A stretch of 64,000 nt of DNA, from contig JAQGBZ010000113.1 in NCBI GenBank assembly GCA_034687125.1, forward strand, positions 117,085 to 181,084. The letters are read 5' to 3'. Source of the DNA: Neelides folsomi (taxonomy: Eukaryota > Arthropoda > Collembola > Neelipleona > Neelidae). The position numbers and the translations under genes are program-made. The notes beneath the pieces are model-generated. The model made no database searches and had not been told where the DNA came from. It saw only the letters and a program-made list of their open reading frames with translations. Of this stretch, positions 4,501-64,000 are shown in pieces; within the stretch, counting starts at the first letter, position 1, and the number at the start of each line of letters is the position of its first letter.

Positions 4501-5279
4501 AATAAGCCGTTAAACTTTACTGTATTGTTATGTAGCATATAAATACGTGTATATAACACATTTTACATTAAAGGAGATAATAAATACAGGGTATGTAGAA
4601 GAGGGTATTAACTATTGTAAGTATATTTTCATGTTTTCAATATGTAAAAATAAGAATATGTGAGTTTAAAAGAGAGATGCTTAAGTAAATGTGAATGATA
4701 AATCAATAAATGGGTTTTATATTGCCTCAGTATTGGCAAGAAGAGTATATGAAAGAAAATAATAAAGTCGGGCATTTTTAGATCTTCAATAGGTAGAGTT
4801 ACATATTTGAAATCATTTTATTGTCGGTAGGTTCATTTATTGCCTCAAGTTACAATTAATAATTCTTTTCCAGGCCAGGCCACATACGCATACTCGAATT
4901 ATTCACGTATTCTAATCAAAAATAATAGGACACAATGCCAATACACAGATACAGATCTGTTGATATATCATATAAATAATATGGTAATAAGTACAAGTAC
5001 ACATTTTAAATCATATATTAAGCTATAATATTGTATATTTGGGAAGGAAATGCGATAGAAATTTCATATATGCAGTATATCTTATAGCAGAAGATCAGAG
5101 CAGATAGGTACATACACTCTAAAATATTTAATTATTTATATTTACAACATTAATATAAATTAAATCTCTTGAATATTTTTCTTATTGATCATTTACTCTC
5201 TATGTTTGTATTTACAATTACATTTTATTTGAGACAAAAATAACTTGTCCAAACTTATTTAACATACCTAATATGTATA

Positions 5280-5351
5280 AATAATATACGGTATATATTT
5301 GAATAAAATAAATAATATACGGTATATATTTGAATAAAACAAATAATATAC
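5280..5351. repeat. 31-bp tandem repeat, about 2.3 copies
   Basis: The unit begins AATAATATACGGTATATATT and is repeated at 5280 and 5311 with only one difference near the end of the unit. A third partial copy starts at 5342. It looks like a recent slippage-type duplication in AT-rich spacer. Confidence 0.8.
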
Positions 5352-6294
5352 AAAATCTAATATAGCATGCAACTTAAATAATTTTTAATGTAATTGAATA
5401 ATTACTACATATATTACAATCATATTGAATAAGTGGTTATGTTATGTAAACTAGAATTTAATACGTATAGATAAATATTTTTAATATATAATGAAAAATA
5501 TTTACTTATAACTGTATATAATATATTTACATTGTACAATAGTAAACACATTTATGTAAAGTAGTAAGTATAACTTTATTTACAAACACTACGTAAGATA
5601 TTACGGACTCATTTTTCATATTTTGTTAATATTACCTACTATCTACAAATATACGATATTATATGTATTGTACATATTTCATAGAAATATGAAATATTGT
5701 ATACTGCACATATTTTCATCATTATTCGAGATATATTGGAGAGCATTATACTACTTAATAAATACGTTATTTACTAATAGTCAGATATTGTCCTCAAATA
5801 TTTTCTTTTTATATATAGTATATGTATCAATATTATTGTTTGAATGAGGTTTTTTGTAGATCTTAATACCCATATTTGAAAAAAGCAATTAGATCATAAC
5901 AAGCCAAAATTAGATGCTGTTATTATTTCTTATAGCCCATTTTAACAACTTACACTGTCACAATTCATTATTTTTTAATTATCACTCTTCACACTAATCA
6001 ATTTATTTTAATATAATTAAGTAATTATTAGTACATTACATTATGTAAAATAATTGTATATTAATAATAAACTCTCATCTCTTTACTCATGAGTATGCAA
6101 GTTACGGAATAATGGAATTTCATTTTGAGATCATAAAGTAGTGAACAAAATTTATATTATTGTAATCTTGATAGTATAGTGTTTTTAGGTGATCTATGGT
6201 TGTGTATTGTCATCATTTATATACATAGTTCATATTGTCAGCAAGATCATTTGATACTTTAATAATATTACTTTGAAAGCTCTTGTGGAGTCAA

Positions 6295-30008: not shown

Positions 30009-31404
30009 TTAAAAATATAGTTTTCGATTTGATGAAGTTGTTAAATTGAACGATCCGTGTCGTCCAACACCGTTAACAAAATCGGTTGCTCCTTTTACAG
30101 ATTCCTATTAGAAAGAATTAAGTATCGTACAATTAAATAAATTAATATTATACAATTATTTTGAAAATATAGAAATGATTGAATACTTTTCGAATAATAT
30201 CGTTTCCCCTTTCCAATTCCAACTTAATGGCTTCTTCGAAAGAGGACGAATTGTACATTGCTTCGTAGGCTGATAATCGATCTCTGTTTAGGCACTCTTG
30301 AGGAAATTTAACAATGCTTGTTGCCAAATTCACAGCTTGTCCAACTCCCGTCCCACAAGCGACAACTTGATTAACAAGCCCCATACTATGAGCTTCGATT
30401 CCGTTAACACCTCTTCCAGTTATGATGAGGTCTAAGGCACGGCTAAGCCCAATCAAATGAGGAAGACGCACAGTGCCGCCGTCAATTAATGGAACTCCTA
30501 TTAAAAATACATTTTTATTTAATAAATATAAATATTTTAAGTGTAGAGCAAAATGAGTATCATTATTTTACCAAATCTCCTGCAGAAAATTCCCATCACC
30601 GCCGTTTCCTCCATAACTCTCATATCACACATCAATGTCAGTTCCATTCCTCCTATAATAGTTAATTAAATGCACTGCTACATAATTGACTCGACCAGAG
30701 GAAATAAATAAGGTTTAGAAATATACCAGCAACAGCGTATCCGGCTATCCCGGCAATGACAGGTTTAGAAAAAAATTTGTGTCTGCTCGGACCCTAATTA
30801 AGTTACAATAAAAAAATAGTTAAATAGCGTTTGATGTATTAAATTACCATTTTAAAAATAAATAATCCATTATTAATTTATTGACCATTGGGCCAGCTCC
30901 GTTTTTAGATGCGGGATTGTAAATAAATTCGTATTCTTCGGGTTTTTCCGAAACTTCTTTCAAGTCGAGGCCAGCGGAAAAACAACCACCTTTACCATAA
31001 AGGACAGCAACAGTGGCCTCGGAGTCATTTTCAAAATTTTCAAATGCTTCTCGAAGTCTTCGAGCAGTTTCAACATTGACACAATTTCTTTTCTCAGGTC
31101 TGTTTATTCCAATGGTGGTGATCCCCTTCAACTTTTCCACAATAACTTCGGCTAAATTGAAAGAGAAAAATATTATATTTCGTAATTAATTTTTATGAAC
31201 ACTCAAAAATATTTATATTGAAATAAATATTACCTATAATATAATTATTATTAATACTAGTAAATACTATACATTGATTGACTTACGTTCAGAAGCGTAA
31301 TACCTTTTTGAGATTTGTTTGTTGTGATTTTGATTCAAGCAAATTTCGGAATTTGTGGTCCTAAGAACAAATGCTCCTGTTCGAACAAATCGGCTTGTTA
31401 ACAT
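30009..31404 (-). CDS. Mitochondrial enoyl-CoA hydratase/isomerase-family protein, copy 1
   Basis: Six exons (31404-31287, 31151-30886, 30793-30727, 30652-30572, 30497-30187, 30104-30009) give 312 residues. The first about 40 residues are basic and hydroxylated (MLTSRFVRTGAFVLRTTN), like a mitochondrial presequence. The crotonase fold follows: ITTIGINRPEKRNCVN, the oxyanion-hole segment GGCFSAGLDL, then AGYAVAGGMELTLMCDMRV with the first catalytic Glu. The region of the second hydratase Glu reads FGVPLIDGGTVRLPHLIG, with no Glu, so classical hydratase activity is doubtful. It ends FVNGVGRHGSFNL. The exon-2 donor (GTCAAT) is weak, but the position is fixed by copy 2. Tandem copy 2 is upstream at 32288-33923. 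Substrate unknown. Confidence 0.9.
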
Positions 31405-32287: not shown

Positions 32288-33923
32288 TTAAAGTTTGGAC
32301 TTTGTTTGAAGATTGAAAGAGCCGTGACGCCCTGTTCCGCCAACAAAATTTTGAGCTCCTTTGACAGACTCCTACAAAGACAAAAGAGATATTGTATAGC
32401 TAATATAAGAAAGTGTACTTGTATATTGAATTGGTATATTTATAATTATGTAAACAAGTATAAGTTGATCTTATCCTATTTATTTTATTTATTTAAAATG
32501 AACAAAATAATCCAGTTAATCATTATCGATCCTATAATGATTAATGTAAAATTAAAGAGAAAATTGAATTAATTTGAGTGGTCCTCACATTTTCAACGAC
32601 GCTAACTCCGTTCCTCAGTTCATACTCTATTGCATCTTGAAACGATTTTGCGTCATACATGGCATAAAACGCTGATTCTCTGTCTCTTCTTAAGCACTCT
32701 TGAGGAAACTTGGAAATTTCTTTGGCTAATTCAATAGCTTGGCTAAAAGCTTCTCCTTTCTTCACAACTCGATTTGCCCACCCAAAAGATAATGCCTCTT
32801 TTGCACCGATTCCTCTACCAGTTAAAATCAAATCCATTGCTCTGCTCAAACCGATTAAATGCGGGAGACGAACAGTTCCTCCGTCCAAAAGTGGAACTCC
32901 TATTAAAATTTATAATTTACTTTAAAATTATAAATAATAACTATTAAAATATTGTATTATTGTTTTTACCAAATCTTCTACAAAAAACTCCAGTGATTGC
33001 ATCTTCTTCCATAACTCTCATATCACACATTGTAGCCAATTCTAGTCCACCTTTAATTTTCATTTGAATATAATAAAATTATAATTAACAAAAAGTTTTG
33101 AGAATTTGAATAAAAGAATTAATTTTTACCAGCAACAGCATAGCCATCAACTGCTGCAATAATAGGCTTCTCAATAAATCTTCTACTTGGACCCTGTTAA
33201 ATCAGAATATAACATTTCAGTAGTTATAAAATCATATAATTTAAATGTGAAAATCAAATTCATTTACCATTGGGCCACACTTTTCTGAATTGGTTGGATC
33301 AAAGTGTTTACTAGATTCGAAGTCAATCTCGGCAGGTTTTTCCGCAAGGGTATTAAGGTCAAAGCCGGCACAAAAAGTTCCCCCTGTTCCGTAAAAGACG
33401 GCGACGGGAGATGACTGGTCTTTTTCAAAATTCTTAAAGGCTTCCATCAGTTCTTTGGCAGTATCCAAATTAACACAATTTCTCTTCGCCGGTCGATTGA
33501 TTCCTATCGTCGTTATCGCGTCAACCATTCCAACTTCGATGTTTTTGTAACCTGTGCAGGAAATAAATATTGTCAAATTATCATTACTCTCATCATGAAA
33601 TCTGATTATAATATTTTTTAAAGTGCACAAATATTATTACATTATTTATTAAAATGTCATTTAATAATTTAATGCCTCTTATGGCTTCGAAGTTTAAATC
33701 TGTTTTGATGTGAAATGTAATGTAATGTATTTCGAAAATGTTTGACACTATAATTTATTCTTATTAAATATATAAGTATTTTAATGTAAATAGGTATACC
33801 TTGAGCTTGAGTATTTTGAGAGTAAAATCGATTTCCAGTTGGTTGGCTCATTGTAATTGTAATAATATTTAGATCTCTCTTAAAAACTCTCGTATTTTTA
33901 AAGATGAATGTTATACCAAACAT
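32288..33923 (-). CDS. Mitochondrial enoyl-CoA hydratase/isomerase-family protein, copy 2
   Basis: Six exons (33923-33800, 33551-33268, 33193-33130, 33050-32970, 32899-32589, 32371-32288) give 315 residues. Intron positions and phases match copy 1 exactly, and exons 4 and 5 have the same lengths (81 and 311 bp). The N-terminus MFGITFIFKNTRVFKRDL is a likely mitochondrial presequence. The core shows INRPAKRNCVN, GGTFCAGFDL, then DGYAVAGGLELATMCDMRV with the first Glu, and again FGVPLLDGGTVRLPHLIG lacking the second catalytic Glu. It ends GGTGRHGSFNLQTKSKL. It is clearly a tandem duplicate of copy 1. The shared loss of the second Glu points to a non-hydratase crotonase reaction or scaffold (inference). 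An alternative start is the Met in TITMSQ. Confidence 0.9.
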
Positions 33924-45365: not shown

Positions 45366-48300
45366 TTAATTTTTAGTTGAGCTTATTGCTATCATTTGCT
45401 TGGATTCTTTCAAAACCTTAAGGCACATCTGAGTCATTTCGGCGTTGAGTTCTTGAAGAGACAACGAATGGTTGAAAGAAAAAGTGATGAGTTGATCCTT
45501 GTAGCTGATTTTGGCCAAATTCGTTTTCGAACTTCTGCTCGGCATTTGAACTGACATTCGCGGACCGTGTCCAAATGGAAAAGCTGCTTTTGTTACCAAC
45601 ATATAGCTTCCAACTTTTGTACTGAAATAAAAAATTAAAATGTTATAAAATTATGATTAGAGTCACAACGGGTAAAAAGATAATTTACTTGTAAGAAAGA
45701 TGCTCTCCCATGAACTCTACGTCATTTCCTTCACAAGGACATTTCCCTTTAATGTAGCCATCAAAGGAATCGCATCGACAGGCAGGAAAGGCCAAAGGGG
45801 AACTGATGCTTTCCAAATAATATCTGTATGCACGTCCATGGCTGCACTCAAGAGCTAACGCAACCATCAAAGCAAAGTTTAAAAGGAATCCTTATTCATT
45901 CGATTTCAAGTATTTGTGCAATATTATACAAAAAAGCAAGTCTTAAAATAAAGTACCAAGTTATATGTTCTAGATAGCTAGGTAAGTATATGATTACCAT
46001 ACTACATAATACTTAATGTTAGTAATTACTTAGGAGTATTAAAAAATTAAGTAAGGGGAAAATAATACTTTCGTAAATGTAGATTTTATTGAGGGGACAT
46101 CCGATCTGTCGATTTCCTCCGTTTGGCCAAAAATCCACATGTCCAATTGTAGCATTGAGGCCTAAATGACCTCCAAAAAACAAGCTTTTCCCTCCGTTGG
46201 TGTGGATCACATCAACAAATTTCGCATCTGATTTATCAAGTTTATAAGCCTCTTCTTGATAAAGGAAAGTTGGACCGGCAGGGTCCAATCCGGTGATTCT
46301 CCCTATTTTACCCCCAACGGCTAAACCAGCCATTCCTTTGAAATTATTTACAAAATATGTTCAATGGAAAATTTACAAATTAATTGCAAAATGTTAATAG
46401 AATGCTGTGTATAATAAAAAAAAAGCAACCTGCGACATGAGCACCCCAAGAAAATCCTATAATATGAAAAGACTCCGGAGAAGCTTTGGAGTTTGCAAAG
46501 AGGAACTTGAGAAATTCGGCCACACGTTCGCCAGCGAGATTTGGAGCAGAAGTCCAGTAAAAGAGAGGAATTGCAAATAAGGAATAATCAACTATGAAAA
46601 CATTGAAATCTCCCAAAGACAAATACGCGTCTCTCATTAAAATGAGGTAAAATGTGGCCGAGGATTCTGTGGCGGTGTCTGCAAATCCATGAATGATCAC
46701 TTTCGTTTTACGCCGGCTGTCGAAGTTGCTGGTGCGAATGGAGTTCACATCTCCAATACGAATCTCATGAGCCAAGATAGGATTATTCCTAAAATGTGAA
46801 CAAAAATCTCGTTCGAATTAAATTATTAATTATATATTATAAAATTAAAAATTAAAATCATAGTTCGATGTTATGTTGTGTCAAATATTAACAAGATTGA
46901 TAGAGATACAATTTCGATTATCAATAATTATTAACTAGAGAAGGGAACTCAAAATTAAGCCCATCTTAGGTATTACCTACTTTAATAATAATTGTTTCAA
47001 GATCAAGAAGTTTCTCTTCAATTAATGATTCTCAACGTCTCAGCAAAATTACAGTTATGTACAATTATATAGGTAGTACCTCTATGATAGTTTCTCATAT
47101 TTAAATGCAGTCGTATCAACACCGGCTTTATTGGAATTGACTAGACTAAACTGTTAATACCAAACATGGTCCGGTATGATTGGGTCGCCCTTCAAATATT
47201 TTTAATTCAAGAATGGATTAATGTTAGCAATTAAGTTGATTTAATTTTGAATTAGGGACCAATTGTCTACATTCCTTCCAAATTTCAAGTGATTTCCTTT
47301 AAAAATGCAAAAGTTATTAAACTTTAAACTTAATTGACATGTAAATGAGTTTTCCAAAGAGGTCTACTTATTAAATCTTACTTTTAGGTAAAATTAATTT
47401 TTTAATCACAATCAAATTTTTTTATAATGGTTCTTTTGTTTGATATATTGCCATTGGTCTTATAAACAACATAGCATCTCATTTTTCAGCTTCGGAAGAC
47501 TCTGGCAAACATTTCAAGGTAGGACATTTTTCCACTCTTGCAGAGAATTCAACAAACCATTCAATGTTGTCGCATTTCTCTTAAAAACTCTTTATATTAA
47601 ATATGGAAATCCGAAAAATCCATCAGTGAAATATTCGGAGATTTGGTTGTGATTTCCTTTTTTTCGATCAGGTATGAAAGATCATTTTAAAATATTCTTC
47701 CAAATCCAACATTCCATCGATGGTTATGTGAATTGAGCCTTTGTCTCTTCAGTTCTCAATTTTCTTTCCCGTCTTAACTTTGGTGCTTGAAGACCATTTA
47801 CAATATCATTTCTTGCTATTCCTTCGTGATATTGAATTCACTAAACTGTTGAAAGTGATACTTCGAATGCATCACTTTCAAGCTCCGTTTTAATGAGTAA
47901 ACCGCTATGGAAAACTCATTTACATGTCGATTAAGTTTAAAGTTTAATAACTTTTGCATTTTTAAAGGAAATCACTTGAAATTTGGAAGGAATGTAGACA
48001 ATTGGTCCCTAATTCAAAATTAAATTAACTTAATTGCTAACATTTTCCATTCCTGAATTAAAAATATTTGAAGGATGACCCAATCATACCGGACCATGTT
48101 TGGTATACCGATAGGGAAAGGATTTGCGACTATACCATGTTACTTGATGCACTATTTTACTATACCTGTGTAGGTGAATTCTGGAGCCTTCGCATGTATT
48201 GAAAATTTTAAATTTTTGCGACACCAAATTATTTAATTGTATCATTTAATGTTATGATTTTTGCTTCATTATGTTATACCTCTATACATTAATTTAAATG

Positions 48301-50446: not shown

Positions 50447-53400
50447 TCATTCATATAAAAATTTGAAAAGTGGTGATCGTCTGAGTCGAGCACTAAAAGG
50501 TTGTTCTAAATGTCTTCGGTCATTATGTGACCTCGTGTTCATCCTGGAATATCTCGGTTGAGTGAAAGTTGGCATTGGAGGAACGGGAAGAGCAATGGCG
50601 TTGTTTCCTTGTGCCTGGAATACATGGAAATGGGGCGGAAGGGGGACTTGGAAAGTTTGACCTCCGGCTCGAATAATGGCGGGCATTGGCATCTGCTGAG
50701 GCGGGAAATTTGAGCTACGTTGGTGAGGGGCTCGTTCAGTCTCATAATAATTTCTCCTGTTCATTGGTGGTGGGGCGTCAACTCTGCGCTCAATTTCAAA
50801 ATTCTTAGGCTGTTGTTTTTGAATGTTTTGATGGTTGTTGCTTTCTTGTTGAATATGATTTTGGACAAGTTTATGGAACGGCATTGGTCTCTGCTCAGGA
50901 GGGAGATACAATTGGGGATGAAGAGATGATTCTTGTGAAATGATGTTTTCATAATTCTCATTACGAATTGGACGATCAGAGTTGAAAATCATATCTTGGA
51001 GCTGTGGCATACCCATTTCTTGAATTTGGGGTGAAGACATGATGTCTTGAATTTGGGGTGAAGACATGATGTCTTGAATTTGAGGTGAAGACATAATCTC
51101 TTGGAATTGGAGTTGAGGTGTAATTCTTTCTCGCATTTGAGGAGGTGAAATAATTTCCTGGATGTTATTTGATCTAATTGGTGTTTGTACCTGGGCCGGT
51201 TCAGCTTTCACCGGTTCGGGTTCAGAAATTGATTTTTCTTCTTTTTCCTCATTATTTGAGATAATTGACATTGTGTACATTGGAGGAAGTTGTTCAGAAG
51301 TTGATTGGATTGAAAGTAACTGAGGTGCAGGTTCGGTTCTTTGCTGGGTTTCTGGAGCTGAAATTGTTTGAACTTGCTCTTGGACAATTTCTGGTTGAGA
51401 TCTCTCTGGTTGTTCATTGGTAGAAATGGACATTATTGGAATCCGAATATCTTCATTCTTTTGTATTATGTTTGGGTTGTTGACTCGGGTTTGGCTTAAA
51501 GGCTCAGCTTCCATAGGAGGAAACTCAACCTCTGAAGTGTCATTTTCGGGTTCAGCATTTGTCTGGTCATCTTGAGTTTGTGGTTGGTTATCTCCATGCA
51601 TCATGTCTTCGATCCCTTGTACTTCTGGTTGGAGATTGAGATGAAATAATGAGTTGGGTAATTGTTGGTTAGTATTCGCATTGTTTTCCACTTGCATGGT
51701 ATTTTGATATTGAGTGGTCGCAGGTTCAGGAATGTCTTCAAGAAGACTGACCGAGGTTCGAATATTGTCTTGACTATCCACTTGTTGGATCATTTGTGGA
51801 ATCTTTTGCATCATTAAACTCATTTGGAGTTGTGAAACTGACTCTGCTGGTGGACTCATAGTCTGAATACTCCGCTCTTCTTCTTCTACTTTTTTAACTT
51901 CTTCGACTTGCTGTCTTTGAACTGGAGCTGGCTCTACTTTTTCTGGCTCTGTTTGTTGGAGCTGAATCTCTTGCCGTTGTTGTTGTTGAAGTCGAACAGG
52001 AACAGAAATTATAGGTTGAGAATTTTCAATTGGCTGCTGAGCTGAGCTTGGCTGTGATTGTTGTTGCAATTGTTGAGCATTTGGATAAAATTGTTGCTGT
52101 TGAACTTTCTGTTGGACTTGTGGAGCACTTTGATATTGTGATTGTGGAGAAAATTGCTGTTGGACTTGAGGGACAATTTGATATTGAGGTTGTTGTTGCG
52201 CAGCTTGATATTGTTGTTGAGACGAAAGTTGTTGTTGCTGTCTTTGGAACATAATTGGAAGAGGCTCAATTTGTTCAATTTTTTGTTCTTGTGTTGTTTG
52301 TTGTTGAATTTGTGGTTGCTGAACTTGTTGTTGAACTTGTTGCACTTGTTCTTGTTGAACAATAGCTGGGAGAGATTGTTGTTGTTGAATTGGCTGCTGT
52401 TGAGAAATTGTAAAAGGCTTTACTTCTTCAATTTGTTGTTGTTGTTGTTGTTGTTGAGGTCGAGACCGTTGAGATTGTTGAGGGAGTTCTAATGACTGAA
52501 GCCCCATTGAAAGTTCGCGCTCATTTTCAATTTGGCTTTGTTGTTGTTCGGGTTGTAATTGTTGTTCCATGGGAAGTTCAAGATGTTGAAGGGCCATTGA
52601 AAGAGGCATTCCGGTATCCATTACTTCTCGGAGTTGTTGTTGTTGCTGTTGTTGGTGAAGTTGTTGCTGCTGTTGTTGGAGTTGACGCATTTGTTGATAA
52701 GCTGCTGCAATCGACTGGGATTCATCCAATGGGGATTTTTGTTGAGACTCAACGGGACTAACTTCTTTGGATCTTTCTTCCTTGGGTTGTTCATATGGAG
52801 TTGGAAGATTTTGCATCATTTGTTGCATTTGCATAAATTGAGCATTATTGCTGGCGAATGTTTGAGGCTGGGCGGGTTTGATTTGAACTGACTCTGTTAC
52901 TTTTATTACTTCAATTGGTTGTTCGTTTTGAGCCATTCTTTGTTGTTCTTGGATTGGAAGAGGAGGATGAGGAGCCATATTTAGCCTCAATTGCTCTCTT
53001 TGGAATAATTCTGGTTGAGCCATTTGTTGTGGCTGTTCTCTTGCTACTACTTGGCTTTCAACTTGTGGTTGCTGCTGTTGTTGTTGTTGGATTGGAATTT
53101 GGATGGGCATTTGCTGGAACATTTCAGGTGTCTGGAAAGTTCGCATCATTTGTTGTTGTGGAGGTGGAAGGAATGGATAAGCAAGTTGTTGCTGCATTTG
53201 AATAGGCATTTGCTGTTGTGGTTGGAATGCTGGAGCTGATTGAACACTCCGAATTTCCCCTTGTGGAAATTGTGGTTGTTGCATTTGAATTGGAAGTTGT
53301 GAGGGTTGAATTTCAGCCGGTCGAGCTCTTAATTCTGGTTGTGGCTCCCTTTGGATCATTTGAGGAATTGGGTTCACATTTTGAACAATTTCTTGTCGAG

Positions 53401-56400
53401 CCACTGAGGGAGGAATTTGAGGGAAATTATTTTCAACCGGAGTGGACTGAGGAGCGAAATTAATTTGCATTTGTTCTTGGAAATTTCTCATTTGTTGCAT
53501 TTGCATTGGAGTTAACATGTGTGGAGATTGGATAAATTGCATTGGCATCATGGCGAGGTTTTGGCCAACTTGAGGTTGTTGTTGTTGGGGTTGAATCATT
53601 TGAATCGGCTGTTGTGGAGTTTCTGGTGCTTGATGATTTTGAATCATTTGAGGATTTTGGAACATCATTGGCATAAGTGGAGAATTTGGTGGGCCATTTT
53701 GAAATTGTTGCTGGTAAGGTGAGACAAGTGACGGCATGGTTCTCAATAATGGATCTTGTTGTTGTTGCTGTTGTTGCTGCTGAATTTGTTGAATTTCAGG
53801 CTGAGCTTGCATTTGAGGAATTGCTTGATTCATTTGAATGATATTTGGTTGCTGAGGACTTTGTTGAATCATTGAGGGTTGAATTGAATTTTGCATTTGA
53901 ATATATTGTTGCTCGGATTGTTGTTGTTGAATTTGTTGCATTTGTTGTTGATGGAACTGTTGTTGAATTTGTTCTTGCTCTGATTGCTGTTGTCGCACTT
54001 GTTGTTGTTCCTGTTGTATTTGGTGTTGCTGTATTTGTTGCTGTTGTTCTTGCTGTTGTTCTTGCTGTTGTTGTTCTTGAAGCTGATTTATTTGCTGCTG
54101 TGCTTGTTGTTGTGCTAGCTGTTGTGCTTGCTGCTGTTGTACTTGATGTTGTTGTACTTGCTGTTGTTGTACTTGCTGCTGCTGTATGCGTTGTTGTGCT
54201 TCTTGCTGTTGTTGGAATTGTTGCTGAGCTGCAAATTGTGATGGGTAGAACATTTGAGGTTCTGAAAGCTGGCTCATCATGTTATCAATTTGCTCCCGTT
54301 CACTTTCATTTTCTTTCCCTTCAGAGACTCGAAATTCATTGACAGCTTGCGGATCTTCATTTTCCTCCACTGACCCTGAATTACCTTCTTGAAATTGTTG
54401 ATCTTCAACACTGCCACTTACGTCAGCCTCGCGATGATCTTGGGGTTGAGCTGCATTTAAACCCTCAACCTGCTCGGCCTGCTTGTTATCATTATTATTA
54501 TTATTCCCATTATGCAAGGAGAGGAGTTGGTTCGTGAATAAAGGAGTTGAGTCAGTTTCAATCTCAATCCCGACCGCTGGTTGACTTACGGCCATTTGCT
54601 GTTGAATATTTTCAACAATTTCCATTGCTTTTGCAGCCAACTCCTCTTTTTCTCTATTATCATTATCCTCATTATTAACAAGACCGTCAACATTGGCGTT
54701 GCTAATTGAAGATTCTTGAGGTTGGGAATCTGATTGTGTAGGCACTGTAGTTGTTGACTTCGTGGCCTGTTGTCCAACAATATGATTTTGAATTGCTTGC
54801 GAAAACAATTGCTCCGTATTCGTATTCAATTCTAATTTTACAATCATGGGACTTGGTTGATACAAGTTGGGGACGAAAGGAGTGATTGTGTACATTGGGC
54901 TCATTTGTCCATTTCCATTCATTAAATTCACCATTTGTCCGGTTCCATGTGGAGGACTCAACATCATGAACTGTTGTTGTCCGTTGGCTCCCTGTCGCAC
55001 CACCAATGAAGGGCTGTTGGTTAAAAAGTTGCTCATTGGATCCTCTTGGCCTGTAGTTGAATTTTTAACATCCGTAAGCATGTTTCCGAAAATATTGAGC
55101 GGAACTGGGCTTTGAACTACGTGGTGTGGCTTTTGATGTTGCTGCATGGACCCAAATAATAATGCTGGATTTAAAGGTTTCACAACTTCGTTTCTCGTGC
55201 TGGCACTCCCAGCGAGTTGTGAAAAAGAAGGCTCTTCAAGATCAACAATTGATTTCTTTTCATCTTTGAAGAGAGGAGATTTGATGTTGTTGCTCGTATT
55301 GAGAGAAGTTCCCTTCTCGATGGCTTGTTTCTCCACTTTGGAGGGATTTTTTCCCAAAGACTCGCTTTCCTCGTTATTTGGAAGGAGGAGATCATAGGGA
55401 CGATGTTGAGTTGGTTCTTTGCGAGAGAATATCCTTGAACTAGAAACATCCCGTTCTTCTGACGTCTCAAAGGAATCCTCCAGACTCGAAGTTTCCACAT
55501 CTTGATTGTAGGTGAGCAACTCTTCCTTTCTGACCTTCTTCACATCCGCTCTGTTACTGGGATTTTCTCTCTCGGTTGTATAATATTCCGGCCCCGACGG
55601 GCTTTTCAATTTCTCACTATTCGTCTCTGCGCTCACGCTGGTGGAAATGGAAACTTTGGTTTGCGACGTTTTGTTATTCATTCGCCCAGTAGTTGTCAAA
55701 TCCTCTCGACCCATCATTTTTCCAACAAAGTCCGAGTCCTTGGCCGTGGCTTGGAACTGACTATGGAAAATTTGGATTTCTTTGTCGTTGGGAGTATCGC
55801 CGATTTTGTGGGGCGGGTTGGTGAACATGACAATCTGGCCGTCTTGGATTACCGAGTAGTGCGGGTTCAAAACGAGTTTTGTACCTTCTTTGGCCTGGGA
55901 TGGAGTAGTAGAGTCCAAAGACATTGGAGTGGAAGTGGAACCAAGAGTCTCTTGAGGACTCACGGAGGTCAAAGGACTACTTGTTGTAGTTGTAGTAGTG
56001 GTGGTGGTTGTCGTAGTGGTGGAAATTGGAGTTGTCGTCGTTGTTGTAGTTGGAATTGTTGGAATTGGAGGATTGGCCACTTGGCTGTATTTAGGAGAAT
56101 AATTAACGTTTTTGAAAACCTCTTCCATTTTTTTCTTTTCTTCTGCTACTTGGATTTTATGGGTTTCGGATTCGGTTTTGAATTGCTCTTCTTCCTCGCT
56201 GGACGAAGGTGTAATTGGAATTTGCTGTTCAGCTTCGGGAATAATCGGACCTGGCATGGCCCATTTAGATTTATCTTCAACTTCAATCACTTCCTCGTGA
56301 GAATCTAAGAGAGAGGGATAATAAACCTTTTCTTGTTCAGCAGACTTTTCATAATTGCTATTCAAATGCTCTTTGCTCCCTGGCTCAATCTTTTCCTCTT

Positions 56401-57569
56401 GCTCATGGAGGATGGAAGGAGACACAACTTGGTCTTCTTTGTCATCAATGATAACTTTACCCGTTTGGGCTCCGGATTCGCCGAGTGGAAGAATCGTGAT
56501 ATTTTCTTTTAAACTTTCTCCTGATTTCTTCTCGGTGACGTTGACACTGTTAGCGATGTGATTTTTAAGGATTTTCTCGGCGAAGACCTTTGGGACTTTG
56601 AAGGAATCTTTGTACTTCATTTTACCATTTGGTTCCATTTCCACTTTGTACACTTCGTAGTCTGAAGGAACGTTTTGGAATTGACCGCCGCGTTGGTAGT
56701 CTTGCAATTTCTCAATTTCAGCATTTGGTAAAATGAGATCTTTGAAGTTTTCTTTGTCTGACTTCAACGGATTAAATTCAAATTCTTCTTCTTCGTCCTC
56801 ATCGTATTTCTTGAGAGAGTCGTCTTCGTCTTCATCTCCTTTACTATCCAAATTCTCCTCTGAAGAGTCATCAATGAATTCAAAGGATTCACCATCGTTC
56901 ATCAATTTCTCGATATTTTCTTGTTGGTTAATGGGTACATCTTGGTTCGCATGTTCAATCAAAATCTTCTCATTTTCCTTCGCTTCCCTTCCAGCTCCCT
57001 TGTTGAAAAAAGTGTGCAAGTCGACAAACTTTGAGGGCTCTTGGAAATTGAGATTTCCTAAGTTTAACTTTTCTTTGTCGTTTATTCCGAGCGTTATTAC
57101 TTTTGGACCATTTTTAGTGTAATCTTGAAACCTGGATAAAATTATGATTAATATTTAATTAGCCGTTATTTATTTTTATACATATTTATCTTGTAAAATT
57201 TAACTAATTTTTATATATAGTATAGATGTTGTTTCAATTTCAAGGTAGGTCTTTTAATCTAAGTAAGCTAATACACATTTCACATTATTATCTAAGGGCT
57301 TTATCAGTTAAATAAATAAATTTGAAATAGGTAATTACTCTGGGATGTGAACTTGTCCAATGAGCTTCTCAATTTCATCGTCACTCAATCCGAGTGATTT
57401 CGGGTCAACGAGTTCAACATCATCGGGTAAATTGTGGTTGATGACCTCTTTGCCGAAGATTATTGCGGTAATCTAATAAGTAGTTGGGTCAAAGTGAGTA
57501 TTATATGTAATTATATACAATTAATTCAATTTGTGATTTTACCTGGAGCAAGAGGAAGATCCGAATCAT
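50447..57569 (-). CDS. Giant secreted Gln-rich low-complexity protein (2281 aa)
   Basis: Three exons (57569-57543, 57472-57339, 57131-50447) join in frame. The first gives MIRIFLLLQ and completes a signal peptide with VITAIIFG. The N-terminal 300 residues are acidic (SEEEEQFK, DEDEEEEFEFN). A Thr-rich mucin-like tract follows (runs of Thr around TTTTTTPIST), then a Ser/Pro-rich part. About 1000 residues are then dominated by Gln runs interspersed with Met, Pro and Ile. Near the C-terminus four copies of a 9-residue SSPQIQDIM-type repeat occur, and the protein ends with a basic tail, RLRRSPLFKFLYE. No folded domain is recognised. The 6.7-kb third exon has no stop, so it is surely coding. Secretion is inferred. 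A matrix, mucus, cement or cuticle-associated role is possible but unproven. CAG/CAA repeats produce long antisense frames that are not genes. Confidence 0.9.
51019..51126 (-). repeat. 27-bp in-frame tandem repeat in the Gln-rich gene
   Basis: Four units start at 51019, 51046, 51073 and 51100. Three are almost identical; the last is degenerate. They encode SSPQIQDIM-type nonapeptides, and the near identity shows recent expansion. Confidence 0.85.
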
Positions 57570-59176
57570 GGTCGGGGTAAAAGGAGCAGCTCGAACGTTC
57601 CTCACCCACTGGGATTCATGAGTCAACTGAGTGTAGCCGGAATGCGACCATTAGGATAAAGAGTGTCACATTTAATTCTGGCTTGAGAACAGGATCGTTT
57701 GCTCCGCCTGAAAGTGATCTCAATTAGAGTCACCTCTCCCACAACACTCGATGAAAAGTGAAATTGGTCTTTTCATGCAACCCCTTCAACTTGCAGTTCT
57801 CCGTTAGTGAAAATTCACAAAGACATTAAACCTGTTTCCTCTCATTCCTTCCCAAAAAAATGATTTTGCCCTCCGTTTGATAAACATTGATGAATTTAAT
57901 GGTATTGAAGGAAATAATAACGATTGATTTTCATTCCTTCTCTTAAGACCTACATTAGCAGATAACTATGCAAGTACGCTCGTAGTAAAAGGAAATTGAA
58001 AACTACCATGTACAATTTTCTTATTGGCGCCTCCTTTGTTTCTCACTATTTTTTTCTGTCAAATACGAAATCTGGAATTAATGCGAGATTATTTGTTCTA
58101 TTAACTTTGTTGACCCCAACTTTCGATTATTATTGAGGATAAACTCGATTTCAAAACATAATTTAATGTTGATTGAAGTATGTTTTGATGTTTCACTTTG
58201 ACGTCCTGATCAGTATAAAGGAATAAGGATGCTTCTCTCATCATTGTTCTTGACGGCTCATATGATTAACTTTAATGGGGTTTGCTATAATTATTTTTGT
58301 TAAATCTCTAATGAAAGTGAAATGGGTAAATGGATCATTCCAAGGTCATATTTCATCTATCTAAAGTTGGAGAATAAAAATAAATGAATCTAAATTGAAA
58401 GTTGAATCTCCTGAATAGATAGTCTTGTTCGGTAGTTTCTTGAAACAGTGAGTGTATTTGTAAGGAGCATCTTTTCGCACGTCGCTTTCACTCTTTTATC
58501 GCTTTACAATCGTCGTGTCACATTCTTCTGCTTTATACAGTGTATGCATTTTGTTAATTTAGAGGAATCCTGAAATGTGTAAGGATTAAATTCATTCATA
58601 AATGCATTTATTTGACTATTCTCCACAATAAAGTTAAATGCAAAATACAGATATCAGATATCTCTGTATCTGTATTAGGTACTTATTTTTTATTCTAATA
58701 CGATTACTTTTTAGGAATATAATATGAATAATATCAATAAGAATTTTCATTACATTAAGAATTTCTCGAAATATAAATAAGTTAACAATTTAGGTCATTG
58801 TCATTACCATTAACCATTATGCTTAAGCAATAAATAAATAAATTTTTAATATTTATATAATTCTTTTTCGTAAGAATTCAACCATGAAATGAACTTAACA
58901 TTGATTTTCCAACATTAATTTTCAATTTATGTTTTCATGTAACATACTTCGAGGTACTATGATTGGTTTAGATCGGAAATGATTTTAAAAAACGAACCTT
59001 TTATCTTGATTAAATGGTTATGTTTACATTTATTCATCATGAGACTAAAGGTATATTAAATGATAAATCATCGCAAATCTTCATTCTTTTAGAAGCTTGG
59101 TATTAAAGTGGAAGGTTTATTATAATTGATTGATTTGTATTTTTGGAAGTGGCCGAATTACGGCTTTCCAATTCCA
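57570..59176. other. Intergenic region between divergent Gln-rich and ion-channel genes
   Basis: About 1.6 kb, with promoters of both genes expected here. No clear TATA box, gene or repeat was recognised. Confidence 0.4.
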
Positions 59177-61659
59177 ATGAAGCGAATTTTGAAGATTTTA
59201 TTTTTTATATCATATATTATTGAGGCTTCATCCAAATTTGAAATTCCACAGGATTATGTCAAAGGTTAATTTACAATTACCTACCTTAATTTTAATAAAT
59301 AGTATTAAAAGAATAATTTTGCTCCTATCATATACAGATTCTTTGCCTATTTCAAACGAAGGAAAAAAAGGTGTTGTAAATGTTAAATTCAACATTTATG
59401 TCGAAGCTATAAATCCTATTAAAGCAGCAGATATGGATTTTAGGTTGTAATAGTATTTATATCGCTGTAAAATTGATTATATTTATTTCATTATTCCTTT
59501 TCTTCCTCAATAAAATATTTTCATTACTATTCAATTATTTAATTTTAATTTTAGTTTATTCTACATTTTCAGAATGAAATTATATATTTTTCAATCCTGG
59601 GTAAGTTTTCATAATTTATTTAATCTATGTAAATTCTGAATTAGCACTTTAATGAAATTAATGATTATTTGACTTAATTGAAGGAGGACAAAAGATTGAA
59701 TTTCTCTGAAGATCAATTCGGAAATAATGAACATATTCTTCTTCCCCAAGAACTGACAGAACAGATTTGGCATCCTGATCCATTTATTGTCAATGCTAAA
59801 AACACGGGTTTCGTTTAGTTATTTTCACCAAACTGCATTATCGCATTATCAAATCAAACCACACTTATTCCAAACTCGAACATTATCTGTCTAAATAAAG
59901 TCCAAATTAACTTTTAGTATACCTTAATTATTAGTTACCAGACATTAAAATATTATTTCTAATCTGTTTAATTTATCTGAATTATAGAAGTTGGACAGCT
60001 TGTTCAGAAGCAAGTGAGCGTCTACATTTATAGAAATCAAACAGTGGCTTCTTCAACCAATTTGTTCGCTACTGTTGCTTGTGCCATGCAATTTCAGTAT
60101 TATCCGTATGACACTCAAACTTGTCCAATGATCATTGAAAGTTGTAAGTTGAAATGCCGGAATTTACAAATACTTTAATGCATACATAGTGTCATTCCGA
60201 CATAAAATAATTCCTAGATATTCAGAAATGGCATGATTAAAATTGAATCTATTAAGAATTAATCAATTAAAACATATATTTTATTTTTAAGATTCTTATG
60301 ACTTAACAAAAGTATTTTATGAATGGGCTCCAACGAATGCTTTTGTAATTAATCCACAATTAAGACTTCTTCAATTTGAAGTACACAGACCTCTTTACGT
60401 CAAGCAAGAAACTTTTGATCGACTCAAAGAAGGTCATCAATGATTGAACAAATTAAATTTTATTAATGATTCGTTCAAATAATAAGTATGTTAATTGATC
60501 GTAATTATTATTTATGTATTACTGTTATAGTATATCACCGATCAACATGAGAAAACTTTAATAAATTGGCCATTTTATAATTTAATGTTTATAGAAAGAA
60601 AATTTTCTCGGCTTATAGCTTTTTTTCGATTTGATCGACTTTTGGGGAATCATTTGATCCAAGTAAGTGAATGGGCCTCAATCTGAAATAAATACTTGTG
60701 CATTAATAATAAAACTATTCCGCTTTCATTTTTTATTGACGTTGGTTGAAATTCTTAATAGGTGTTTGCTCCCTGTTCTTTGGTCATTTCTTTAAGTTGG
60801 TTCAGTTTTTGGTTGGATATGGATGCCATTCCAGCGAGAGTTTCAGTCATTGTTACTTCGATGCTGACATTGGTCACTCAATTCAACGGATTGAAATTGG
60901 ATCTCCCTCCTGTGGCTTATGTGAAAGCAGTTGATATTTGGATGGCAGGCTGCATGATTTTCATTTTCGGAGCTTTGGGAGAATTCGTAATTGTGAAAGT
61001 CGTGTCAAACATCACAGAAGACAAAATTAAGGATTTTGAAGATAAACAAAAGGCTTTAGCCGCTGCAGAGAAAGAAACTATGTCACCAAATATCGACTTA
61101 GGAGACAAATTTTCATTGGATGAACCTCGAAACAAAAGCGAAGAGTTGGAAGGAATGACAAGAAAAGTTTGTTTCAATAATAACAAAATACAATTAAAAG
61201 TTCAAATTCTATAAACGTTTATATGAATCTCAATCTAATGATAAATAATAAGTGTTTAATGATATTTTGATATTTTTTTTATTATTTTAGCCATTTAAAT
61301 TAAGCCGTTTTATTGTGCTTGAAGATCTTGTGATCAAATCACCATCCAGCGGAGCTTACCCAAAACGAGGAAGTGTATTTGATCGAGAAAGAACAAAGGA
61401 AGATAATGAGGAAATTAATAGAAAAATATCAAAGTTGAAAGTTGAAATTTCAGCTTCTTTCTTAAACACCAAAATCCCTTTGGTTTGGGTTCAGTCGAAG
61501 AAGAACAAAAGGAAAGTTCTTTGGAAAGAAATCGACAGCATCTCACGTTGGGCTTTCCCAACAACCTTTTGCTTTTTCTCACTTATTTATTGGCTTGTAT
61601 TGTGGATTCATAGGAATTTTATGTTGCCTTCTGGGCCATACAATACTAACATTAAGTAA
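59177..61659 (+). CDS. Cys-loop ligand-gated ion channel subunit, anion type
   Basis: Nine exons (59177-59264, 59338-59443, 59573-59600, 59684-59807, 59988-60143, 60292-60432, 60595-60662, 60762-61166, 61291-61659) give 494 residues. The signal peptide is MKRILKILFFISYIIEASS. The extracellular domain shows FQSWEDKRLNF, IWHPDPFIVNAKN and the Cys loop C147-x13-C161 (CAMQFQYYPYDTQTC). M1 starts VFAPCSLVISLSWFSFW. M2 begins with AIPARV, the Pro-Ala-Arg signature of chloride-conducting glycine/GABA/glutamate/histamine-gated receptors. M3 (IWMAGCMIFIFGALGEF) follows, then a loop of about 120 residues and M4 (FFSLIYWLVLWIH). There is no second Cys pair in the loop-C region, unlike typical GluCl. The ligand cannot be told. 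The sequence is divergent in M2 (VTSMLTLVTQ). Confidence 0.9.
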
Positions 61660-62613
61660 GTGATGCAATACATTAACATAATATATTAAACAACAGTAAA
61701 GGAGTAGGTAAGTTAGATTAAATAAACTATACTTATGAGTATAAGTTAAATAGTGAAATAATGTACAAATATTTTTCAAAATCATTTCAAATATTTTGTA
61801 GATACCTACTTACCTACTTTAACCATCTTCATACGTAGAATAATATTGTAAATACATAGAATAGACGAAAGGAAAATATTTACGTAAGACTACTTGTATT
61901 TAAGGAAAGATTAACATTTTATCAGTAGCGTAAAGGCGAATGACTAGGAAAATATTAATACTTTCATAAGTATATTGGTGCTTAATGTAATGTAAATTGT
62001 AATACTTAAGCTAGTTATTGATTAATAATTATAAATGATATGAGTTAATCTGTAAACATGTGTATTTTATAATAAAGTATAACTTGAATTATTGTATGTG
62101 AGCGTATGTTTTTTTGACGATATTTGTACTATAACATAATAACAACACTTATGTGGGTACTACGTAGTAAGTATACTGATTCTTAAAGTGTTTAATTTCA
62201 AAATTTTGTGCACTTTGTTTAATAGATTATAAATTATAACAATACCATGTCTAGCATTTAATCTTATATTTATATATTGTATAATTCCATTTACGTTGAT
62301 ATATTATATCACATTATATTTATGTTGAAACTTCGAATGCTGATTGCTGACGCAAAAAGAATGTCAAGCTATTGAAAGATTAAAGTTCGAGAAAATATAA
62401 TAATTTACTCTTTGTACTTTATTGAAGCAACTCTCAAGCCAAACGAAAATATTATTTTGGTTTCTTCTATTTAGTTTTAAAACATCTAATAAATATATTT
62501 GCTATATATTTTTTCAAATAGTGACATTTAAAAATTCTTAAAATATCGAAGAATACAAATACTGCTACCTATAAAAATTATTTGTTTAACAGTATCATAA
62601 TCGGTTGATAAAC
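61660..62613. other. Spacer
   Basis: Very AT-rich 3' flank of the channel gene and upstream region of the CNPase-like gene. No recognisable motif. Confidence 0.5.
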
Positions 62614-63758
62614 ATGAAAGTTTTTATTCGAACTCTTGTTTTTATCGGATCTTCTCTTCTATTTGCCAGTGCTTTGGTAAGAAATTCTGTGTATTTTTAT
62701 TAAAATTGTTATTACAGACAGCCCACATATTATTAAACATCGTAGATAAATTATATAAATATAATAACTATATTTGTCGATAATTTTATTATTGTTTTTG
62801 CATAAAGATATTATCCTAATGCTGACATTATTGTTTCTTAAAATAATATGTTAGATTCAACGTTCTGATAAGCGTAATTCTGGAATCTATCAAGTTCAAT
62901 TGGAAGATTTTCATATTAATGACGTGAATTCGAGCTATCCATTATATTACGGATGGTTCTTGGACGAACAAACAGCAAACTCCCTTCAAGCGATCAAAGA
63001 CATTTTTTTCTCTAGTGCTTACCTCAATGTCAGCACATTTCGTTATTTCATAGATATTGCGTGTGAAAAGGAAGAAATTGATAATCCATTTAAATATTTT
63101 AAAAAACCGAGAGATCCAAATACCGGAGAATTTGATCCACTGTATCACATTACGTCAAAATTTTGCAACAGAGAGGATTGTTCTCCCTATTCTGATCATG
63201 TTAAAGATTTTCTCAATCAAACATTCAAATCTCATTTGGTCGGTCTGTTTATTACCGAAAGAACCTTTGGAATAAGAATTAATTTAACAGAAGAACAAAT
63301 ACCCCTCTTCGACAATAACAAATTTTCTCAAATGAACAACAATAAAAAAGAAATTTTGACAAATGAGAGAGATTATCCCGGATTTACTTTTCTTCCACAA
63401 GAACAAAATTTCAAACCAACAACGTCAAAGGCTCATATTACATTAGGATGCGCACCAGGTTTGTTGTTTGTACATATTTACTTTATTTGTTTTAATTATT
63501 TTTTAATATTGTATAAATATTTCATAGATTTTATTAATTGATTTAGGTGTTGAGGCTTATGTTACTGGAAATGATCTTATAAATATAATAATGCTCGAAT
63601 CGGATCCCGGAGTTGCTTATCTCGATTTTAAAATCAACGATGGAACTCAATTTGCCTCTACTTTGAGACAATACTTCACAAGAGAAGGAGAAACAGTTTT
63701 TGTTTTTTATCCTCATAATCAAATGATAATTGATACCCGCTTTGAAGAATATTTGTAA
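62614..63758 (+). CDS. Secreted CNPase-like 2H phosphoesterase
   Basis: Three exons (62614-62676, 62855-63458, 63547-63758) give 292 residues. MKVFIRTLVFIGSSLLFASA is a signal peptide. The rest matches the catalytic domain of 2',3'-cyclic-nucleotide 3'-phosphodiesterase: PLYYGWFLDEQT near residue 50, first H-x-T at 119-121 (YHITSKFC), second H-x-T at 215-217 (AHITLGCAPGVEAYVTG), followed by NDLINII. Both H-x-T motifs of the 2H fold are intact, so it should hydrolyse 2',3'-cyclic nucleotides to 2'-nucleotides. Vertebrate CNPase has an N-terminal kinase-like P-loop domain and a C-terminal lipidation site and is cytosolic/membrane-bound. Here neither is present, and export is predicted instead. 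Substrate outside the cell is unknown (inference: extracellular RNA products). Confidence 0.88.
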
Positions 63759-64000
63759 AGTTAAAACTCCGATCATTTAAGAATTTCTAATGCAATATAT
63801 TTATACTTATTTAGAGTACCATTTTACGATACATAAAATTTATTTTATTTGGTATATTGCTATACAACATATTACATAATGGAATCTTCAATAAATCATA
63901 ATCAATTTCGATTACAATTTTTATTTTTTCGAGTATATAAAAATACATTAATCCTTGGTAATATAAGGAAATAAAAGATTTATGATTTACTTCAAACCAT
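63759..64000. other. 3' flank of the CNPase-like gene
   Basis: AT-rich, with AATAAA at 63890-63895 as a candidate polyadenylation signal. Nothing else seen. Confidence 0.45.

What the first reader, a model, noticed from the sequence alone, without database searches (positions are those of the whole stretch)
62614..63758. A CNPase catalytic domain carried on a secreted protein
CNPase-type 2H phosphoesterases are known as cytosolic or membrane-attached enzymes of cyclic-phosphate ends. This gene encodes the catalytic domain with both H-x-T motifs intact, but behind a clean signal peptide and without the kinase-like domain. An exported enzyme for 2',3'-cyclic nucleotides would be unusual. It might act in extracellular RNA turnover with secreted RNases or, in a host-associated animal, on host cyclic nucleotides (speculative).
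Basis: partly seen in the sequence, partly recalled or inferred. Interest (0 to 1): 0.75.

Follow-up and report, generated by a model that had tools for sequence, protein, structure and literature searches.

The report
Probably secreted, kinase-free CNPase enzyme gene
An arthropod gene carries the catalytic part of an enzyme best known from vertebrate nerve myelin, with its active site largely intact, but behind what looks like a secretion signal and without the usual kinase-like half, which suggests an exported enzyme for cyclic-phosphate products of RNA breakdown.

Summary
Three exons (62614-62676, 62855-63458, 63547-63758, + strand, GT-AG introns) give a 292-residue protein. Pfam: CNPase PF05881, 72.4 bits, E 5.3e-20; best solved relatives are goldfish RICH and mammalian CNPase. 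Both H-x-T motifs are intact; mouse Tyr168 and Phe235 are kept, Arg307 is Lys, Val321 is Tyr. Exon 2 has no Met before the domain, and exon 1, the only fitting first exon found between the upstream channel gene and exon 2, reads as a signal peptide. Its donor is middling and missed my first cut-off. Leader-like exons are rare elsewhere: 2 of 87 candidates, at one site. No P-loop pattern lies upstream. The arthropod genome has one other CNPase-domain gene, modelled without kinase domain or leader, and an RNase T2 gene. Secretion and activity are inferred; transcripts, orthologues and a usable structure model were lacking. Most likely an exported or endolysosomal 2',3'-cyclic-nucleotide phosphodiesterase: a new variant of a known kind.

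The parts
62614..62676 (+). exon 1: start codon and signal-peptide-like leader, 21 codons
   Evidence: the only ATG-to-donor exon with donor score above -2, phase 0 to exon 2, between 61660 and exon 2; core hydropathy 2.37; donor TTG|GTAAGA scores 2.5 on a recalled textbook weight table (below the cut-off of 3 first used)
62677..62854 (+). intron 1, GT-AG, phase 0
62855..63458 (+). exon 2: start of mature protein and most of the CNPase catalytic domain, both H-x-T motifs
63459..63546 (+). intron 2, GT-AG
63547..63758 (+). exon 3: C-terminal part of the domain and stop codon; aligns with the paralogue to its last residue

Best explanation
The gene encodes an exported, kinase-free CNPase-type 2H phosphoesterase. 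Exon 1 directs the chain into the secretory pathway and is cleaved near A-S-A|L. The mature ~272-residue protein uses its two His-x-Thr pairs to open 2',3'-cyclic nucleotides or cyclic RNA ends to 2'-phosphates. The most likely setting is extracellular (gut or haemolymph) or endolysosomal RNA breakdown, downstream of RNases such as RNase T2 that leave 2',3'-cyclic phosphates. Shown here: domain, motifs, leader-like first exon, no kinase domain in the model, presence of an RNase T2 match. Inferred: secretion, activity, substrate and compartment.
For: PF05881 match far above cut-off; solved CNPase and RICH chains are the only matches better than E = 1 (23 of 29 listed); all four catalytic His/Thr residues plus Tyr168 and Phe235 equivalents kept. 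Exon 2 has no in-frame Met before the domain, so an upstream first exon is required, and the one that fits in the stretch after the channel gene reads as a signal peptide; in 190 kb of other contigs, both strands, 2 of 87 candidate initial exons did, both at one site. The paralogue shares the domain at 32% identity over 252 positions but starts with a Lys/Ser/Thr-rich region, not a leader. No membrane span after the leader (max 19-residue hydropathy 0.91) and no C-terminal prenylation-type motif (ends EEYL). RNase T2 match with WTIHGIW and FWGHEWLKHG in the same genome.
Against: No RNA data and no orthologue to show that exon 1 is used or conserved. The donor is middling: 2.5 against 4.6 for a donor in the channel gene; with the cut-off of 3 that I tried first, exon 1 was not listed at all, and the cut-offs were set after that, the 2.5 being exon 1's own score. 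Four N-glycosylation sequons in the mature part are no more than composition gives (shuffle mean 2.6, 25% of shuffles reach 4). Arg307 to Lys and Val321 to Tyr could alter affinity or specificity. Single-sequence AlphaFold of exon 2 was uninformative (pLDDT 34), so the cleft geometry is untested.
Confidence: 0.66

Rival explanations
1. The leader is a mitochondrial targeting sequence, so the product is a mitochondrial CNPase.
For: CNPase in vertebrate mitochondria is the subject of PMC7246452 (abstract start, passages). The leader has K2 and R6 and no acidic residue.
Against: The leader has a continuous hydrophobic core and a small-residue cleavage site, typical of secretion; mitochondrial presequences are usually amphipathic and richer in Arg (recalled). 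No predictor for mitochondrial targeting was run.
Confidence: 0.1
2. The real first exon is another one and the protein is cytosolic; exon 1 is a chance open stretch.
For: No transcript evidence; exon 1's donor is middling; the paralogue's model has no leader.
Against: The only other candidate with a positive donor score, 60585-60662, lies inside the span of the upstream channel gene, and its donor there is probably the channel's own (inference). A leader-like exon by chance is rare. An untranslated first exon with the start in exon 2 would lose most of the domain, because no in-frame Met precedes it. Not tested: first exons starting before 60001, non-ATG starts, other exon 2 acceptors, or a further internal exon.
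Confidence: 0.14
3. It is exported but is a binding protein or an enzyme of shifted specificity rather than a classical CNPase.
For: Two residues of the mouse ligand pocket region differ (R307K, V321Y). In mouse, R307Q and V321A raise KM (PMC4643303 passages).
Against: All catalytic His/Thr residues and the base- and ribose-contacting aromatics are present; R to K is conservative.
Confidence: 0.1

Closest known systems
Vertebrate CNPase catalytic domain (PF05881; mouse/rat/human chains such as 2xmi, 2ilx, 1woj)
   Same: sequence family, both H-x-T motifs, Tyr168 and Phe235 equivalents
   Different: the vertebrate protein carries an N-terminal domain with a P-loop (PMC5434554 passages) and is membrane-associated (PMC3290555, start of abstract in a listing); this one has a leader and no P-loop; R307K and V321Y
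Goldfish RICH (2i3e)
   Same: best solved match, E 1e-14
   Different: RICH proteins can bind membranes through a carboxy-terminal element (PMC10463786, start of abstract in a listing); none is evident here
Lancelet PNK/CPDase tRNA-healing enzyme
   Same: related cyclic phosphodiesterase domain (PMC5434554 passages)
   Different: has an active polynucleotide kinase domain and is discussed as a tRNA-healing or DNA-repair enzyme, hence intracellular (inference)
Second CNPase-domain gene of the same genome (G000 C110:98760 to about 100519)
   Same: domain, 32% identity over 252 positions, intact H-x-T pairs, no kinase domain in the model
   Different: Lys/Ser/Thr-rich N-terminal region of about 225 residues instead of a signal peptide; keeps Arg at the 307 position

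Membership tests
CNPase catalytic family (PF05881) | profile score above the curated cut-off | tested here: met
   72.4 bits against 25
CNPase catalytic family (PF05881) | two H-x-T motifs | tested here: met
   H119-I-T121 and H215-I-T217
CNPase catalytic family (PF05881) | motifs face one cleft in a bilobed 2H fold | tested here: inconclusive
   single-sequence model of exon 2 only, mean pLDDT 34.1
CNPase catalytic family (PF05881) | hydrolysis of 2',3'-cNMP to 2'-NMP | not testable with these tools
   needs an assay
Full-length CNPase (myelin type) | N-terminal P-loop kinase-like domain | tested here: not met
   no P-loop pattern in six contiguous frames of 58001-64000; of 4 AAA_33 matches in the genome (3 over the cut-off; 22 of 33 candidates scored) none is on this contig
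Secreted protein | N-terminal signal peptide, no later membrane span | tested here: met
   at sequence level only, by my own scorer with cut-offs set after a first run; SignalP not available
Secreted protein | experimental export | not testable with these tools
   needs expression or proteomics

The most novel reading that the evidence does not exclude
This arthropod lineage has split the CNPase family into a secreted and an intracellular kinase-free enzyme, the secreted one forming with RNase T2 an extracellular pathway that disposes of or recycles 2',3'-cyclic nucleotides (nutrient salvage, or quenching a damage signal).
Probability: 0.25. Interest if true: 0.65.

Novelty: new variant of a known kind. 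Interest (0 to 1): 0.42.

Why it matters
The physiological relevance of CNPase is still described as enigmatic (PMC10792529 passages). A compact kinase-free form sent into the secretory pathway would separate the phosphodiesterase from tRNA healing and myelin biology, and would give a simple enzyme with which to test whether extracellular 2',3'-cyclic nucleotides are waste, food or signal.

Tried and rejected
Relatives: the one viral-contig scan run found none (3 stretches matched a pattern, none confirmed). So conservation of exon 1 and a survey of arthropods were not done.

Structure: exon 2 alone gave a useless model (mean pLDDT 34.1), so no fold search was run on it. An alignment with the paralogue was not sent, because its loci came from the genome search and the fetch from genomes, which the structure tool's list of allowed sources does not name.

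Glycosylation as a sign of secretion was rejected: 4 sequons are not more than composition gives, and 0 in the paralogue's domain is no fewer than chance (34% of shuffles). An upstream kinase exon was rejected within the limits of a pattern search. Myelin link: 2 papers hold copepod, myelin and CNPase (listing only) and neither title concerns a copepod CNPase; not pursued.

Literature, listings only: CNPase with secreted and copepod (0 papers); with evolution, invertebrates, 2H phosphoesterase and RICH (15 papers); with invertebrate homologue terms (761, 20 listed); copepod and transcriptome terms (121, 20 listed); signal peptide and extracellular (37, 20 listed); secreted 2H phosphoesterase (3208, 15 listed); cAMP-adenosine pathway (21, 10 listed); arthropod (4). 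None of the listed titles and abstract starts describes a CNPase behind a signal peptide. The library is open-access only and the lists are capped, so this does not show absence from print.

Full report
Gene. Exons 62614-62676, 62855-63458 and 63547-63758 join in frame through GT-AG introns to a 292-residue protein. The window ends at the end of its contig; the coding region is complete within it.

Domain. Pfam gives one family at E up to 10, CNPase PF05881 (E 5.3e-20, 72.4 bits, cut-off 25, residues 50-240). Against solved structures, 29 distinct sequences were listed at E up to 10: the first 23 are RICH or CNPase (E 1e-14 to 2.9e-11) and the other 6 are chance-level (E 1.5-1.6). The C-terminal part encoded by exon 3 goes beyond the Pfam match but aligns with the paralogue to the last residue.

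Active site. By the numbering in PMC4643303 (passages) and the alignments, mapped: His230/Thr232 are H119/T121, His309/Thr311 are H215/T217, Tyr168 is Y52 and Phe235 is F124. Arg307 is K213 and Val321 is Y227. In mouse, R307Q has a raised KM with wild-type kcat, similarly to V321A, so a working enzyme with possibly altered affinity is expected. This is inference.

Leader. Exon 2 contains no in-frame Met before or in the first part of the CNPase domain (the first is in FSQMNNN), so a first exon upstream is needed. I enumerated ATG-to-donor exons from 60001 on, phase 0 to the exon 2 acceptor, with a donor table recalled from textbooks. The first run, with a cut-off of 3, listed one candidate, 60585-60662, and not exon 1. 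With the cut-off lowered to -2 there were four: 60585-60662 (4.6), exon 1 of this gene (2.5), and 60819-60911 and 60861-60911 (-1.3 each). The three others lie inside the span of the channel gene, whose last frame ends at 61659, so exon 1 is the only one in the stretch before exon 2. It scores as signal-peptide-like (core hydropathy 2.37, net charge +2 before the core, permissible cleavage site). In the window, 1 of 24 candidate initial exons with donor of at least 2.5 (9 on +, 15 on -) passed the leader test, and it is this one. In 19 stretches of 10 kb at one fixed position in other contigs (380 kb counting both strands), 2 of 87 passed, nested ATGs of one site. This supports exon 1, but it is a home-made test whose donor cut-off equals exon 1's own score. 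No membrane-span-like stretch follows the leader. N-glycosylation sequons are not enriched (4 observed, shuffle mean 2.6, 25% reach 4).

No kinase domain. No P-loop pattern occurs in six contiguous frames of 58001-64000; a motif split by an intron would be missed. Upstream lies a ligand-gated ion channel gene (PF02932 and PF02931). Four AAA_33 matches in the genome (3 over the cut-off; 22 of 33 first-look candidates scored) lie on contigs C586, C107, C31 and C308, not on the contigs of the two CNPase genes.

Paralogue. The genome of 75.1 Mb in 840 contigs shows two CNPase places by profile, and the protein search gives five exon matches that fall in the same two genes. Searches are by exon, so weak or split members could be missed. 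The second gene, C110:98760 to about 100519, models as four exons and 473 residues: a Lys/Ser/Thr-rich N-terminal region and a CNPase domain (PF05881, E 1.9e-16), with H-x-T motifs intact and Arg at the 307 position. The one P-loop-like match in the stretch C110:90400-100300 (ANLPKGKT, + strand) falls in the low-complexity region and is taken as chance. The model has no leader. A P-loop domain in unseen upstream exons is unlikely, because open frames on the opposite strand that look like another gene lie just upstream (by eye).

Setting. 39 Chitin_bind_4 matches mark the genome as arthropod (the link is recalled); copepod was not tested. One RNase T2 match passes the cut-off, with WTIHGIW and FWGHEWLKHG in adjacent open frames, which I recall as the catalytic motifs; it lies at the end of its contig, so the gene is seen only in part, and its own secretion was not tested. 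RNases of this type leave 2',3'-cyclic phosphates (recalled). The vertebrate 2',3'-cAMP-adenosine pathway, in which CNPase is involved in making 2'-AMP, and a cited paper titled 'Extracellular 2',3'-cAMP is a source of adenosine' give a precedent for such substrates outside cells (PMC7246452 passages and reference titles).

Verdict. Real gene, real domain, probably exported. It is a new variant of a known enzyme family, moderately interesting, with secretion and substrate untested.

Noticed in passing
window 50447-57154, - strand: A single open frame of 2235 residues, very Gln-rich in its middle, with strong strand composition skew over 52001-56000.
   Followed up: no
window about 59981-61660, + strand: Ligand-gated ion channel gene (PF02931, PF02932 in two of its frames) directly upstream in the same direction.
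   Followed up: partly
window 46380-46817, - strand: Lipase domain exon, PF00151, E 2.4e-17.
   Followed up: no
window 30148-30567 and 33241-33633, - strand: Frames resembling enoyl-CoA hydratase; the first matches ECH_1, the second was judged by eye and not scanned.
   Followed up: no
L003 about 4720-5720 (C110): Many short imperfect copies of a GGTAACCATTACCCG-type motif near the paralogue's locus, seen by eye.
   Followed up: no
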